Of a stretch of DNA of 64,000 bases, positions 53,949 to 61,072 are shown in pieces (within the stretch, counting starts at the first letter, position 1; every line of letters starts with the position of its first letter). The stretch is from NCBI GenBank assembly GCA_001898035.1, contig MKRX01000027.1, positions 205,727-269,726 of the forward strand, in the 5' to 3' direction. Source of the stretch: Armatimonadetes bacterium 55-13 (lineage in GTDB: Bacteria; Armatimonadota; Fimbriimonadia; Fimbriimonadales; Fimbriimonadaceae). The translations under genes and the position numbers were made by a program. The notes beneath the pieces are model-generated. The model made no database searches and was not told the origin of the DNA. It saw only the letters and a list, made by a program, of their open reading frames with translations.

Positions 53949-56900
53949 ATGGTTGGGCATTTTACTGGGTTACTGGGTTCTTTGGTTCTTGTTTCCAGCG
54001 TTTTAGGTCAGGCGGTTTCGGACGCGACCAATATCGACACGCGTTGGAATCGTTCATGGCCGGCGGGTCCGTTCTCAGAAGTAAGCACGTCTTGGGGGGT
54101 CTTGCAAACCTCGGTTCCGCTCTTTAGTCTGGAGGGGCCGGCCGGGACTTCCATCGGCTTTTCCATTTACCATCGCAGCAACCAAAACTCTTCGGCGATG
54201 CTCGCTTACACGGACGGCGGCGCAGGGCGTGGGTTTGTGACGAGCGTGACGCAGACGATGCAGGCGGGAACCTCGGCGGTGACGTGGTACCAAGGCGGCA
54301 ACTCGACGGCAAGCTGGACGGTGGCTTCGGTCAGCGGGGGCGTTCCTACTTACTCGCGTACGGCGGGCACCCGGGCCGACCTCTATCCCTACATGTCGGG
54401 CGGAAAGATCCAAGGCTGGGACGTGGTGGACCAGTCGACGAAGGCGGTTTACAAGTTTCGCCAGGAACTGGTGGACCAGGTGGTTTACCGCCTAACCCAG
54501 ATCGTCGACACCCACGGCAACACGGTCAACTACCAATACGACAGCGCCAACCGCCCTACCAGGGTGACGGACGCGAGCGGCGTTCGGTACGTGCAGGTGT
54601 ATTACACCTCAGGCTGGGGGAACGAGCAGGTGGCGGGGATCACGCTCAACTATCCGGGTGGCAGTCGCACCTGGGACTTCTACTACAGCAGCTTCTACCT
54701 GGACCACATCGACTTTCCGGCGCCGACGACGGGCGGGGCTCGTCCGAAGGTGGGATTCCACTATACGTCCAACTCCAACATCGACGACGTTTACGACCTC
54801 AAAGGGTATCGCTGGCACTATACGTATGGGACCGTGTTCACGGGTTACCAAGGGGTGACGAAGGCGTATCCGCCCTCTTTGAGTTCTCCGACGACCTCTT
54901 ACGATTCGACGGGAACGGGGTTTGCATGGTCGACTTACACAAGCGGTCCCGCCTCGGGATGGACGAAGACCTGCACCATTAACGACCGCCGTGGTTGGAA
55001 CTGGAAGCACGTTTACTACAACAACGGTGGCAACGACTGGTTTAGCTGCCCCATCAAGGAGACTTGGGATGGAGGGCTGGTGTCTCACGACACCTACGTT
55101 TGGAACTACTCGGACGCGACTTTGGCGAGCCATACGGACCGGCGGGGCTGGACGACGAGCTTTACCTACGACACGGGCAACCGCGGGTTGATGCTGACCA
55201 AGACGGACCGGGAGGGCTGGCTTTGGCGGTACCTGTACTACCAGGACAAGCTGGTGACGCAGATTGACCCGACCACGAACCGCACGACGTATGCGTACTA
55301 CACGCCGAGCTGGGATCTGGCGACGGTGACGGTGGATCCCAAGACGGATCCTTTCGATGGCGGCTACAGCAAACCCTCGGGCGTGGCGCTCAAGACGACG
55401 TATACGTACACGGCGAGCGGAGAACTGGCGAGCCAGTACGCGGGCACGGATTCTCCGGTGCAGTATTCCAACTTCGACGCCTACGGAAATGCGCGCACGG
55501 TGACGAGTCCAGCGGGGAACAACGCGACCTTTACGTTTGACGATCTCAACAACAAGCTGAGCTCGACGGAGCTCGCTCCGGGGGGCACGACGAACTTCAC
55601 GTACGACAACTGGAACCGCCCCTTGCGCACGACGTTCCCGGGGGGTTCTTACGCGGAGAAGTCTTACGACAACAACTCCAACGTGGTGAGTGTGCGGGAT
55701 GCGAACGGCCACACCTCGACGATGGCTTACGACTCAATGAACCGCCTGACGAGTACGACCCAGCCGGTGGATTCGGTGGCGGCGAACAACATCGTGACCG
55801 GCTATGGCTACGATCTGGACTCCAACCAGACGAGCGCGACCAACGGCCGGGGGAAGGTGACGACGTACACCTTCAATTCCCGCAGCCAGCTCACGCAGAT
55901 TACGTATCCGGACACCACCACGCGCAAGTTTGACTACGACAACAACGGCAACCGCATCAAGCGCTGGGATGGACAAAACCGTTTGACGAATTACACGTAC
56001 GACAAGGAGAACCGCCTGACGGTGACCTGCTTGCCCGATGCTACGAGCACCACCAACACCTGGCGCTCCGATGGTCTAAGGGACAAGTATGTGGATTGGA
56101 ACGGGACGACGCAGTACACCTACAACGGGGCGAAGCAGCTCCTGACGGTGGCGCAGCCCATCCCCAACAAGACGGTGACGTATACGTACGACACCGGCGG
56201 ACGCAAGAAGACGATGAATGTGGGTTCGATGACCTGGACCTACAACTTCGACTCGGGTCTGCGGCTTTCTTCGGTGGCGCAGACGGTGGGCGCGGCGACT
56301 CCGGTGACGTTCTCTTACAACGCGAACGATTCGATGGCGTACCGCACGCTTGCGAACTCGACGAAGACGGTTTACGACTACGATACGCGGGGACGGGTGA
56401 ATTACATTTCTCACCAAACGTCCTCGGGTACGGAGCAGCAGCGTTTGAGCTACACCTACGATGACAACGGGAACGTTTTGACGTACCGTGACAACATCAT
56501 CGGAGGGAACAACTGGCTGACGACGCACACCTTCGACTGGGCGGACCGGCTTGGCACGGAAACGCGCACGGGCGGTTCGAGCTTCAACTTCACGAACGTT
56601 TACGCCTACGACAAGAACGGGAACCGCACGAGCGTAACGCGGGGTGGTTCTTCTTCTTCGTACACGGTGGACGACAACGACAAGCTTTTGTCGGGCGATG
56701 GGTTTACGTTCTCCAGCTACTCGCTGGACGGCAATCCGGGGAGCGTAGCCTCCGGCGGGGTGACGAAGACGTTTACCTACGACACGGAGAGCCGGGTGAA
56801 GACGATCGCCTACTCATCGGGTGGTTCTAGCGACACGTTTAAGTACAACGGGGACGGTCAGCGGGTGGAGAAGGTGGAAAACGGTACCACCACGCGCTTC

Positions 56901-57821
56901 GTCTACGACGGTTCGACGGTGATCGCGGAGACGAACGGCTCGGGCACGATTACGAACTACTTCCTTCCAGGGATTGGCTGGGTGGCGGGGACCACGCAGC
57001 GTTACTACCGTGAGAACGGTCTTGGCTCGAACGTGACGACGATGACTTCATCGGGAAGCGTTGACTCCCGAACGGAGTACGATGCTTATGGCGTCGAATA
57101 TAACGTGAGTAGTGGTACGAAGAGCCAGTTTAGGTTTGCCGGCAAGCACGGCTACTACACGGACGACCGCTCGGGGTTGCAGCTTCTGGGCGCGAGATAT
57201 TACATGCCCGCGCTGGGGAGGTTTCTCACGCAAGACCCCATCGGGCATGAGGCGGGACTCAATCTCTATGCCTACTGTGGAAACAACCCCCTCAGCAAAG
57301 TCGATCCAGATGGAAAAGACTTCTTTGACACTTGGTTTGGACAGATGTTTGTAGGGGAAAACTGGAGCAAAGGACTTACTACCTCCATGGCAGCGCTAGG
57401 AACCGTAGGCTCGAACACCGCTATTGGCATGGTTAAGATGGGGACCGTCGGCGGTGATTATATCTTTAAGGATGTTCAAGGGTGGGACGGTGGAGCACAC
57501 AAGCATGATCCAGGATTTCGACAATCCACAATAGCCTGGGATATCGCAAGTGAGTCCATTCAAATGCTAATTGGGGCAAAACTATCTAGCGTAGATGGTA
57601 TTGTGTGCAGAAAACTCCCATCGGGTGGTTTTACCTGGACTCGAGTGGATCAGGCCGGAAAGCAACTCGGAAGATTTGATTGGCACCGCTTACCGAAAGA
57701 TGCGTCTCAATATAAAGATATTAAGAAAATATTAGAGTGGGCTAGAGGAAGAAGTCTCCCGCATATTCACCGCAGAATGAGCGGGGGGATTGGCAGACAT
57801 TGGCCCTGGGAGGGTAAATGA
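53949..57821 (+). CDS. Secreted RHS/YD-repeat polymorphic toxin with variable C-terminal tip
   Basis: 1290 residues. A signal peptide (VGHFTGLLGSLVLVSSVLGQ) is followed by a long shell of YD repeats (for example YDSANRPTRVTDASG, YDNNSNVVSVRDANGH, YDTRGRVNYISH). The RHS core ends with ARYYMPALGRFLTQDPIGHE and NPLSKVDPDG (about residues 1083-1120). The last 170 residues are an unrelated tip: a hydrophobic part, then GRFDWHRLPKD and PHIHRRMSGGIGRHWPWE. The H-rich end resembles tips seen in other RHS proteins; I recognise no named toxin family. No VgrG or PAAR domain is present, so export is probably Sec-dependent. The gene overlaps the next gene by 4 bp (ATGA), as toxin-immunity pairs do. Codon use shifts to AT-rich after about 57,300. 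Confidence 0.88.
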   Translation: MVGHFTGLLGSLVLVSSVLGQAVSDATNIDTRWNRSWPAGPFSEVSTSWGVLQTSVPLFSLEGPAGTSIGFSIYHRSNQNSSAMLAYTDGGAGRGFVTSVTQTMQAGTSAVTWYQGGNSTASWTVASVSGGVPTYSRTAGTRADLYPYMSGGKIQGWDVVDQSTKAVYKFRQELVDQVVYRLTQIVDTHGNTVNYQYDSANRPTRVTDASGVRYVQVYYTSGWGNEQVAGITLNYPGGSRTWDFYYSSFYLDHIDFPAPTTGGARPKVGFHYTSNSNIDDVYDLKGYRWHYTYGTVFTGYQGVTKAYPPSLSSPTTSYDSTGTGFAWSTYTSGPASGWTKTCTINDRRGWNWKHVYYNNGGNDWFSCPIKETWDGGLVSHDTYVWNYSDATLASHTDRRGWTTSFTYDTGNRGLMLTKTDREGWLWRYLYYQDKLVTQIDPTTNRTTYAYYTPSWDLATVTVDPKTDPFDGGYSKPSGVALKTTYTYTASGELASQYAGTDSPVQYSNFDAYGNARTVTSPAGNNATFTFDDLNNKLSSTELAPGGTTNFTYDNWNRPLRTTFPGGSYAEKSYDNNSNVVSVRDANGHTSTMAYDSMNRLTSTTQPVDSVAANNIVTGYGYDLDSNQTSATNGRGKVTTYTFNSRSQLTQITYPDTTTRKFDYDNNGNRIKRWDGQNRLTNYTYDKENRLTVTCLPDATSTTNTWRSDGLRDKYVDWNGTTQYTYNGAKQLLTVAQPIPNKTVTYTYDTGGRKKTMNVGSMTWTYNFDSGLRLSSVAQTVGAATPVTFSYNANDSMAYRTLANSTKTVYDYDTRGRVNYISHQTSSGTEQQRLSYTYDDNGNVLTYRDNIIGGNNWLTTHTFDWADRLGTETRTGGSSFNFTNVYAYDKNGNRTSVTRGGSSSSYTVDDNDKLLSGDGFTFSSYSLDGNPGSVASGGVTKTFTYDTESRVKTIAYSSGGSSDTFKYNGDGQRVEKVENGTTTRFVYDGSTVIAETNGSGTITNYFLPGIGWVAGTTQRYYRENGLGSNVTTMTSSGSVDSRTEYDAYGVEYNVSSGTKSQFRFAGKHGYYTDDRSGLQLLGARYYMPALGRFLTQDPIGHEAGLNLYAYCGNNPLSKVDPDGKDFFDTWFGQMFVGENWSKGLTTSMAALGTVGSNTAIGMVKMGTVGGDYIFKDVQGWDGGAHKHDPGFRQSTIAWDIASESIQMLIGAKLSSVDGIVCRKLPSGGFTWTRVDQAGKQLGRFDWHRLPKDASQYKDIKKILEWARGRSLPHIHRRMSGGIGRHWPWEGK
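56737..57258 (+). repeat. RHS core segment, copy 1 of a direct duplication
   Basis: This part of the intact RHS gene is repeated at 58414-58905 with near-identity, apart from a 1-bp loss, a 27-bp deletion and scattered substitutions. It provides homology for exchange of C-terminal tips. Confidence 0.85.
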
Positions 57822-58171
57822 CGCGAAAGGAAGTAATTGTAGAAGTTCAAAGTGCTGTAAGGCGGGCGATGGATGGCTGGAAATATGGTTCTCTCTATTC
57901 CAATTTCCATCTAGACGAAAACTTGGATATCCGAAAGGCAGTCAAAGACTTTGATGACATCTTTGAAGTTGTGGTGTTTGCAGACGAGTTCTTTTTGAAT
58001 TATGCTCATGCAGATGAATTTGCTAATCTATCCTGGGAGGAAGCCAAGGAAAGGCTGTACTTAATGTTGAAGTCTCTCGCAGAAGAAGCCGGAATTGAGA
58101 AAATTACGATGGCAGAATTAAACGGAGACAGGGTGAACGACGACGATATCAGACAAAAAGACGGCGTTTAG
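57818..58171 (+). CDS. Putative immunity protein of the RHS toxin
   Basis: 117 residues, acidic, no signal peptide or membrane helix, so it is probably cytoplasmic. Helical with motifs AVKDFDDIFEVVVFADEFFL and NLSWEEAKERLYLMLKSLAE. I recognise no immunity family. The assignment rests on position: its ATG overlaps the stop of the toxin gene by 4 bp, it is small, and it is AT-rich like the toxin tip. A cytoplasmic location suggests the toxin tip acts in the cytoplasm. Confidence 0.65.
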   Translation: MTRKEVIVEVQSAVRRAMDGWKYGSLYSNFHLDENLDIRKAVKDFDDIFEVVVFADEFFLNYAHADEFANLSWEEAKERLYLMLKSLAEEAGIEKITMAELNGDRVNDDDIRQKDGV

Positions 58172-58342: not shown

Positions 58343-58413
58343 CAAGGAGTAGATCCTCAATTATTTATGTGAGATCTCAGTGTAGCGAGCATTACCTGGG
58401 AGTCGAGGAACGC

Positions 58414-59520
58414 GGGAAGCGTAGCCTCCGGCGGGGTGACGAAGACGTTTACCTACGACACGGAGAACCGGGTGAAGACGATCGCTTACTCATCGGGGGG
58501 TTCTAACGACACGTTTAAGTACAACGGGGACGGTCAGCGGGTGGAGAAGGTGGAAAACGGCACCAACCGCGCTTCGTCTATGACGGTTCGGGCACGATTA
58601 AGAACTACTTCCTTGCGGGGATTGGCTGGGTGGCGGGGACCACGCAGCGCTATTACCGTGAGAACGGTCTTGGTTCCAATGTGACGACGATGACTTCATC
58701 GGGAAGTGTGGACTCTCGAACGGAGTACGATGCTTATGGCGTCGAATATAACGTGAGTAGTGGTACGAAGAGCGAGTTTAGGTTTGCCGGCAAGCACGGC
58801 TACTACACGGACGACCGCTCTGGGTTGCAGCTTCTGGGTGCTCGTTACTACATGCCCGCGCTGGGCAGGTTCCTCACGCAAGACCCCATCGGGCATGAGG
58901 CGGGATCCAACCTATATCAGTATTACGCTAATAACCCGCTGGTTAAAACAGACGCTACTGGATTGGACTGGATTCTCTACCGGGGGCAGTCTCTAACGTA
59001 TTATCGAGGTAAATACGGTGGTGCCCAACGTCCAATATTTACTATTGCCGCCACCTCTGGCCTGTCCGGAGATCAGGAGACGAGGTATTCAAACATAAAT
59101 GCGGAAAATGCCGGAATTGACAATTCTGGAGGACCGATACCTGCGGGGCGATATCGAATCGACTTAGGGAAAAAGCCAAGAACGGCAGATCAAGTGCAGA
59201 TTGACGGTGACTATTATCTCGCTGCATCTAATGGTATTAGCTATATGCCGAAGGACTCCGACAGCAATTCTGAATACCCTAATTGGGGAACATGGCGGGC
59301 AAGATTGGAGCGTGTAAGGGGAAAAATATTTGGAAGAGGGAACTTTTACCTTCACGATTCGGGCAAAGGGTATTCTCATGTCAGTATTGAGTCATCGCGG
59401 TCAGGTGGCGATATGCTCCTAAAGCGCCTTCTCTATGCACGACGATCTGGAATCAAATCAATTGATGTAAGGGTGGAATACGAAGGCACTTCAACCAGGG
59501 GAAACACGACAGGAAATTAA
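58414..59520 (+). pseudogene. Orphan RHS C-terminal end with an L,D-transpeptidase-like tip
   Basis: 58414-58905 copies the end of the RHS core. Against the intact gene it has lost 1 bp near 58565-58572 (frameshift) and 27 bp after GACGGTTCG near 58595. There is no signal peptide or proper start; the second frame could begin at a GTG at 58630 and run to 59520 (296 residues). After ARYYMPALGRFLTQDPIGHE the tip is new: FTIAATSGLSGDQ, GGPIPAGRYRID, NFYLHDSGKGYSHVSIESS. This is the layout of Tlde1/DUF2778-type L,D-transpeptidase effectors, where the last motif should read SHGCIE. It looks like a reserve or displaced tip cassette. Confidence 0.75.
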
Positions 59521-59545
59521 CGTAAGTGAAAAGGAGATGACAATT

Positions 59546-59977
59546 ATGAACTTGTTCTCACATTTGATATCTTATTTTCTTGTGCTCCTGAGTCTGTTCG
59601 TTGGTCCTTCAACTTCTTCAGGTGGAAGCCTTGAATTTAAGAGATTAGGTGAATCTTATTCATTTGATTCTCACATAAAATTTTCTATTAAGAATAACTC
59701 TAAACAGATGATCAAAGGTTTTGTCGGCCTACAAGAATGGCAAAAAGAATCGGATGAGTATCGGCTTGATTCCGTTGATGTCTTTGCGAAAGACTATAAG
59801 GCGCGTCCACATCGTTGGGATTTTAGGCAAGGCGAGGAAAAGCACTTTGACTGGAATCTTGATCAAAAAAGGAATAGCCTAGCGAGAAAGGGAATGCGTG
59901 TTAGGTTAGTTTTTCTGGCAGACAATAAGAAAGGTCTTATGACTGTCGCGAGAAGCTCGCCTTTTACAATCCACTGA
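59546..59977 (+). CDS. Putative exported immunity protein for the orphan tip
   Basis: 143 residues from the ATG at 59546, for which AAGGAG (59531-59536) is at a good distance; an ATG at 59537 is too close to it. The signal peptide NLFSHLISYFLVLLSLFVGP is followed by a beta-rich domain (SHIKFSIKNNSKQMIKGFVG, GMRVRLVFLADNKKGLMTVA). A periplasmic partner is what an effector attacking peptidoglycan would need, and it starts 25 bp after the orphan tip. No family is recognised; the assignment is by position and export signal. Confidence 0.6.
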   Translation: MNLFSHLISYFLVLLSLFVGPSTSSGGSLEFKRLGESYSFDSHIKFSIKNNSKQMIKGFVGLQEWQKESDEYRLDSVDVFAKDYKARPHRWDFRQGEEKHFDWNLDQKRNSLARKGMRVRLVFLADNKKGLMTVARSSPFTIH

Positions 59978-60145: not shown

Positions 60146-60533
60146 TTGGACTCAAGAGAACTTTTCCATACCGTTAGCGTTACTCTATTGCTAATAATGT
60201 CTGGAATAAACCCGCGATGGCGTCAGGCGAAAGTTGAGCCATTTTACGGCGATCCAGATCCAGGGAGTTATCTATCGCGGTTAATGGAGTCAATTGGTCG
60301 ATGGTCTCCTCGTAATAGGCGTCTCTTGGAAAAGAGGAGCATAGAAGAATCAGTCTGGGTTGGCTAAAGTCAAGATACAGCGCTTTTCAAGATGATGACG
60401 AGATTGCTCAGATATGTTTGACGAAGCTGGTCGCGAGAAGCCTCCCAAAAACGATCTGCTTGTCAAGGTAGCAACAAGTTTAGCTGCTTGGTCACAGAAC
60501 AATTCCAGTTCATTTGAAAGGACTTATGGTTGA
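60146..60533 (+). pseudogene. Decayed reading frame, possible former immunity gene
   Basis: Three protein-like fragments lie in different frames: one from a TTG at 60146 to 60367 (ending LEKRSIEESVWVG), a second across 60362-60410 (WLKSRYSAFQDDDEIAQ) and a third from 60414 to 60533 (MFDEAGREKPPKNDLL, ending SSSFERTYG). Joined by two frame changes, they would give one protein of about 125 residues whose stop overlaps the next gene in the form TGATG. I read this as a degraded gene. The alternative is that only the first 73-residue frame is used. Confidence 0.4.
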
Positions 60534-61072
60534 TGGAAGAAAGGAAAGTGAGAACTGTGCTTTCATACGGTCTGTTGATGCTCATGGCGTGTAGCTTCGC
60601 TTGTCACAAAACCAAACAAACACCGCAATCAAGCGTTCTTGGGCGATCAGCCTCCAAGAGCATTGTTGGTCAGTTGGCTCCACCTAACGATATGGGAGCA
60701 ATGTTTGAGACTGAAGTAATTTATGGTGTTTACGCAGTTTTAAGAAGCCATGGTCTATGTTCTGTGGTGCCGCTCATAGACACCGGTCAGAGTCTGCCAT
60801 CCTTTAACGATGAAGAACGGGCCTGTCTTTTAAAGTATGCACCGAGCCTCATTGAGGATCTCAAGTCCTTACCTAAGTCGCGATACATTATCCAAACTCA
60901 TCAAACCGCTGTTGGAAAAGCATTTAGTGACCTATCTAAAGATGACGTCATCTTCGTAACCTACTCACGTCGAGATGATATTCCAATTTCTTACAGTACA
61001 AAGAAGTATCCTTGGATCTTTTTACAATCAGAGTCTCTAAAACTTAGTCGCTATATGCGGAGGGCAAAGTGA
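60533..61072 (+). CDS. Putative lipoprotein in the toxin-immunity region
   Basis: 179 residues from the ATG at 60533, with AAAGGA about 10 nt upstream. The N-terminus VLSYGLLMLMACSFAC carries a lipobox-like LMAC, so it is probably a lipid-anchored envelope protein. The body includes AMFETEVIYGVYAVLRSHGL and DVIFVTYSRRDDIPISYST. No family is recognised. The gene overlaps the broken Imm8-like gene by 4 bp (GTGA). Base composition is AT-rich like its neighbours. Confidence 0.6.
   Translation: MEERKVRTVLSYGLLMLMACSFACHKTKQTPQSSVLGRSASKSIVGQLAPPNDMGAMFETEVIYGVYAVLRSHGLCSVVPLIDTGQSLPSFNDEERACLLKYAPSLIEDLKSLPKSRYIIQTHQTAVGKAFSDLSKDDVIFVTYSRRDDIPISYSTKKYPWIFLQSESLKLSRYMRRAK

What the first reader, a model, noticed from the sequence alone, without database searches (positions are those of the whole stretch)
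58918..59520. L,D-transpeptidase-like effector tip without any cysteine
The orphan tip has the GPIPAGRYRI and NFYLHDSGKGYSH signatures of Tlde1/DUF2778-type effectors, but the expected SHGCIE reads SHVSIE (codons GTC AGT at 59380-59385), and the whole tip contains no Cys. Those enzymes need the Cys. The tip is thus inactivated, or a Ser has taken over, which would be new chemistry for the fold.
Basis: partly seen in the sequence, partly recalled or inferred. Interest (0 to 1): 0.6.

Follow-up and report, generated by a model that had tools for sequence, protein, structure and literature searches.

The report
Dead Tlde1-like toxin in orphan cassette
A leftover toxin cassette behind a larger Rhs toxin gene still folds like a known wall-attacking enzyme but has lost both residues at the heart of its active site, so it is almost certainly a disarmed relic beside its protective gene rather than an enzyme with new chemistry.

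Summary
Window 58630-59520 is an open 296-codon frame ending in a Tlde1-like domain (58954-59517). It reads SHVSIE (59374-59391) where relatives read SHGCIE, and the domain has no Cys. The AlphaFold model matches Salmonella Tlde1a (Z 20.3, 161 residues). Ser144 aligns with catalytic Cys131 and Val143 with Gly130.

Gly130 is the floor of the D-amino-acid pocket, and in published Tlde1a work changing either Gly130 or Cys131 abolishes toxicity. In LdtMt2 the Cys-to-Ser change gives no product. A scan of about 85,000 species genomes with a motif allowing G or V, then C or S, found 24 relatives. In the 23 whose motif could be read (one is frame-broken) it is G-C. The exact variant occurs in 1 of 291 genomes of the phylum: this one.

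The cassette is an orphan: its Rhs core copy lies behind a full-length Rhs, is frame-broken, and is followed by an intact exported immunity-like ORF. A fragment in the same bacterial family is also broken (a stop codon) yet keeps its Cys.

Verdict: an inactivated, displaced toxin/immunity cassette. Serine chemistry is not excluded experimentally but nothing supports it.

The parts
53949..57821 (+). full-length Rhs protein (1290 aa) with its own, different C-terminal tip; N-terminus looks like a signal peptide
   Evidence: ORF; RHS_repeat and Rhs_assc_core hits; signal peptide judged by eye
57818..58171 (+). ORF overlapping the end of the full-length Rhs, candidate immunity gene for its current tip
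   Evidence: position and overlap; no family hit
58413..58953 (+). orphan Rhs core fragment: 473 of 533 columns identical to the end of the full-length core but 28 nt shorter in two places, so its reading frame is broken near 58567-58590; no full 5' part
   Evidence: blastn; dN/dS against the full-length core 0.087
58630..59520 (+). open frame (GTG, 296 aa) holding the rest of the core and the Tlde1-like tip
   Evidence: Rhs_assc_core E 1.8e-20
58954..59517 (+). Tlde1-like (LD-carboxypeptidase/transpeptidase fold) tip
59374..59385 (+). active-site tetrapeptide S-H-V-S in place of S-H-G-C; Val at the Gly130 position and Ser at the Cys131 position of Tlde1a
59537..59977 (+). intact ORF (146 aa) with a signal-peptide-like start, candidate periplasmic immunity protein
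   Evidence: best non-member of 3,581 ORFs (E about 1e-3 to 7e-4) for a profile built from ORFs behind Cys-bearing tips in L008, L009, L010

Best explanation
This is a displaced (orphan) Rhs C-terminal toxin/immunity cassette. Its toxin domain descends from a Tlde1-type enzyme that in its active form trims or exchanges the terminal D-Ala of peptidoglycan stem peptides through a Cys thiol. Here the Cys is Ser and the Gly next to it, the floor of the D-amino-acid pocket, is Val, so the domain should fold but not catalyse (inferred). The core copy in front of it is frame-broken, so it is not made as a full Rhs protein (shown in sequence). The downstream exported ORF is intact and probably the cognate immunity gene (weak sequence evidence); if anything here is still selected, protection against neighbours carrying the live toxin is the likeliest part (inferred).
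For: Fold: AlphaFold pLDDT 83.8; Tlde1a best by Foldseek (E 1e-10) and Z 20.3, rmsd 2.1 over 161 aa. Position: HMMER aligns SHVS with SHGC without gaps. Function of the two residues: Tlde1a G130Q and C131A non-toxic (PMC9638812); LdtMt2 C354S gives no product (PMC11410929). Conservation: G-C in 20/20 aligned relatives, in the 23 of 24 genome-scan relatives whose motif is readable, in 11 distant Burkholderiaceae hits and in the Nonomuraea record. Orphan state. Relic state of the only same-family relative, with a stop codon in the domain. Precedent: orphan CT/immunity modules often lack start signals while the orphan immunity protein is made (PMC3150448).
Against: The tip frame is open and most other near-invariant positions are kept (26 of 30; G143V, C144S, F155L, L158R differ, the last two in a gapped stretch), which is cleaner than free decay would give after a long time. 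The orphan toxin modules tested in PMC3150448 were still active. Immunity assignment is weak (17 bits). No activity was measured.
Confidence: 0.82

Rival explanations
1. Serine has taken over as nucleophile and the domain is an active Ser-dependent peptidase or transpeptidase of the LD-transpeptidase fold.
For: Ser sits at the Cys position with both motif His kept; open frame; a Ser-dependent beta-lactam activity exists in a YafK protein of the superfamily (PMC13400389).
Against: Cys-to-Ser kills LdtMt2; the adjacent Gly, needed in Tlde1a, is Val; variant found nowhere else; in the YafK case the Ser is elsewhere in the fold and the Cys is still present.
Confidence: 0.04
2. A kept pseudoenzyme: the domain still binds stem peptides or the immunity protein and has a non-catalytic role.
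For: Most of the cleft is preserved; the LdtMt2 C354S mutant protein was crystallised with substrate; the changes remove catalysis without breaking the predicted fold.
Against: No start signal of its own is evident and the core is frame-broken, so expression is doubtful; no family of such variants exists in the genomes searched.
Confidence: 0.08
3. A local assembly or sequencing error produced GTC AGT where the organism has an intact Gly-Cys pair.
For: At least two base differences within four bases; single genome; no reads available.
Against: Frame and all surrounding codons fit the family; the genome is 99% complete in 27 contigs, and clustered substitution errors without indels are unusual.
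Confidence: 0.05

Closest known systems
Tlde1a (type VI effector of Salmonella Typhimurium; PDB 7uma, 7uo3, 7uo8; Pfam PF10908)
   Same: Fold over 161 residues at 32% identity; W93, R99, R115, Y119, H121, S128, H129 all matched in the HMMER alignment (numbering from PMC9638812).
   Different: Cys131 is Ser and Gly130 is Val; carried on an Rhs core instead of being a free type VI cargo; below the Pfam cut-off (17.3 against 30.1 bits).
Orphan Rhs-CT / CdiA-CT toxin-immunity modules (PMC3150448, PMC3967940)
   Same: Partial core copy behind a full-length gene, no evident start signals, followed by an immunity-like ORF.
   Different: The orphan toxin modules tested there were still active; here the catalytic pair is lost. 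The bacterium is an armatimonadote, far from the enterobacteria studied.
Lpg1514, YafK protein with Ser-dependent beta-lactam activity (PMC13400389)
   Same: YkuD superfamily; a Ser reported as catalytically required.
   Different: The Ser is outside the Cys site and the Cys is retained; no such arrangement is shown here.
LdtMt2 C354S (PDB 8pxy, PMC11410929)
   Same: Ser at the Cys position of the fold.
   Different: Laboratory mutant of a housekeeping enzyme, inactive on its substrates; its Gly is intact.

Membership tests
Tlde1 / PF10908 LD-carboxypeptidase-transpeptidase effectors | Tlde1 variant of the LD-transpeptidase fold | tested here: met
Tlde1 / PF10908 LD-carboxypeptidase-transpeptidase effectors | HXX14-17-(S/T)HGC motif with catalytic Cys | tested here: not met
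   SHVS, no Cys in the domain
Tlde1 / PF10908 LD-carboxypeptidase-transpeptidase effectors | Score above the curated Pfam cut-off | tested here: not met
   17.3 against 30.1 bits
Tlde1 / PF10908 LD-carboxypeptidase-transpeptidase effectors | Cleaves or exchanges D-Ala4 of stem peptides | not testable with these tools
   needs a biochemical assay
Orphan Rhs-CT/immunity module | Partial Rhs core plus tip downstream of a full-length rhs gene, without the delivery part | tested here: met
Orphan Rhs-CT/immunity module | Followed by its own immunity gene | tested here: inconclusive
   intact exported ORF with weak profile similarity to ORFs behind related tips; pairwise E 0.027 to the L002 ORF
Orphan Rhs-CT/immunity module | Toxin active when expressed | not testable with these tools
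   predicted inactive from the two lost residues

The most novel reading that the evidence does not exclude
The domain is a natural serine-nucleophile member of the LD-transpeptidase fold, with the Gly-to-Val change reshaping the exchange pocket for another substrate.
Probability: 0.04. Interest if true: 0.7.

Novelty: new member of a known kind. Interest (0 to 1): 0.2.

Why it matters
It shows a Tlde1-type tip on an Rhs core in Armatimonadota and an example of an orphan cassette whose toxin lost its active site while the fold and the neighbouring immunity-like gene stay intact. That fits the idea that orphan cassettes can persist for their immunity genes. It is not evidence for serine chemistry.

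Tried and rejected
Viral contigs and phages: no relative. Plasmids: one relative, on a Nonomuraea record, with Cys. Phylum hits L003, L005, L006, L007 were spurious alignments outside real domains. Phylum survey around the Verrucomicrobia relative: only itself in 337 genomes. Immunity ORF in 291 phylum genomes: only itself. A structure of the immunity ORF was not attempted because its alignment was poor. Whether the tip frame itself is under selection was not testable: no close intact relative exists.

Full report
Observation. Window 58630-59520 is an open frame of 296 codons, GTG start, no internal stop. Its first part is the end of an Rhs core (Rhs_assc_core); from about 58954 it is a separate tip. 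The tip reads GGPIPAGRYRI ... NWGTWRARLE ... GRGNFYLHDSGKGYSHVSIESS and holds no Cys. The codons are GTC and AGT at 59380-59385.

Family. Pfam gives the Tlde1 domain weakly (17.3 bits, cut-off 30.1). phmmer against solved structures gives only Tlde1a (E 3e-7). An AlphaFold model on an alignment of 21 relatives has pLDDT 83.8 and pTM 0.83. Foldseek ranks the three Tlde1a entries first (E 1e-10), VIA-align gives Z 20.3 over 161 residues at 2.1 A, and other LD-transpeptidase-fold proteins follow at Z 12 and below. In the HMMER alignment with the numbering of PMC9638812, window H134, S141, H142, V143 and S144 correspond to Tlde1a H121, S128, H129, G130 and C131. I could not superpose coordinates, so Ser at the Cys position rests on a gapless sequence alignment inside a confident fold match.

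Two hits, not one. The Gly before it is also gone. [quoted passage not shown] the variants that misfolded in that study were S128A and R99A. In LdtMt2, C354S gives no product on any tested substrate, and the authors conclude that serine cannot replace the cysteine. Either change alone would be expected to kill the enzyme.

Is the variant found elsewhere? A scan of genome contigs (84,980 species) used, among its two patterns, the motif KG[YH]S[HM][GV][CS][VI]E, which allows all four combinations, and gave 24 relatives. Where the motif can be read it is G-C in every one; L029 is frame-broken across it. Eleven more distant Burkholderiaceae loci all have G-C, as does the Nonomuraea plasmid record. 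A back-translated SHVSIE pattern occurs in 1 of 291 genomes of the phylum, this one. Among 30 columns nearly invariant in the other 20 proteins, the window departs at 4: G143V, C144S, F155L and L158R; the last two lie in a stretch with gaps. The Verrucomicrobia Rhs tip L010 departs at 8 yet keeps G-C.

Context. The tip sits behind a full-length Rhs gene (53949-57821) that has a different tip and an overlapping small ORF (57818-58171). The orphan core fragment is 89% identical over 533 columns to the end of that gene, and 28 nt shorter in two places, so its frame is broken. Over 141 aligned codons dN/dS against the full-length core is 0.087: the two cores diverged mostly under selection, so the displacement is likely recent. 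That is few codons, and says nothing about the tip itself. This is the layout of orphan CdiA-CT/Rhs-CT modules, whose toxin part often lacks start signals while the orphan immunity protein can be made (PMC3150448).

Immunity. The ORF at 59537-59977 is intact and starts like a secreted protein. A profile of the ORFs behind the Cys-bearing tips of L008, L009 and L010 finds it as the best non-member of 3,581 ORFs (E about 7e-4); with L002 also in the profile it scores 17.4 bits against a best of 4.3 in 500 shuffles of itself. With L008 and L009 alone the signal is lost. The pairwise match to the ORF behind L002 is 23% with E 0.027. I call it a candidate, not shown.

Relative in the same family. 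L002/L013, from a genome of the same bacterial family (an Armatimonadetes MAG), carries only the last part of the domain, with a TAG at the second Trp of NWGTW, and still has SHGCVE. The two copies of this tip known in the family are therefore both broken, by different routes.

Reading. The simplest account is a displaced toxin/immunity cassette whose toxin has been inactivated. The clustering of two changes on the catalytic pair, with the rest of the fold kept, hints that loss of toxicity was favoured or came as one clustered event, but one genome cannot tell. Serine takeover has no positive support. A 2026 paper reports Ser-dependent beta-lactam turnover in a YafK protein (PMC13400389), but through another Ser with the Cys still present, so it is a loose precedent only. 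Bench tests proposed use the native domain and natural intact relatives in laboratory strains.

Noticed in passing
window 53949-57821 and 57818-58171: Full-length Rhs with a signal-peptide-like start and an unrecognised tip ending in LPHIHRRMSGGIGRHWPWEGK, overlapped by a 117-aa ORF, a candidate immunity gene.
   Followed up: no
L058, L059, L060 (G000 contig C26) and L061 (contig C8): Further Rhs core copies elsewhere in the same genome at 36-38% identity, three of them within about 4 kb.
   Followed up: no
L002 1000-2240: In a genome of the same family, a fragment of a related tip with an in-frame stop sits between two Rhs fragments, followed by a lipoprotein-like ORF.
   Followed up: partly
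L010 3001-3510: Verrucomicrobia Rhs protein with a Tlde1-like tip whose motif region reads KDETSGCVE: Cys kept, but the usual GYSH is replaced.
   Followed up: no
L045-L055: Burkholderiaceae Tlde1-like hits read S-x-G-C with Ile or Ala in place of the second motif His (for example GSIGCID), a different active-site pattern.
   Followed up: no
window 60530-61072: Lipoprotein-like ORF of 180 aa without family hits, downstream of the orphan cassette.
   Followed up: no
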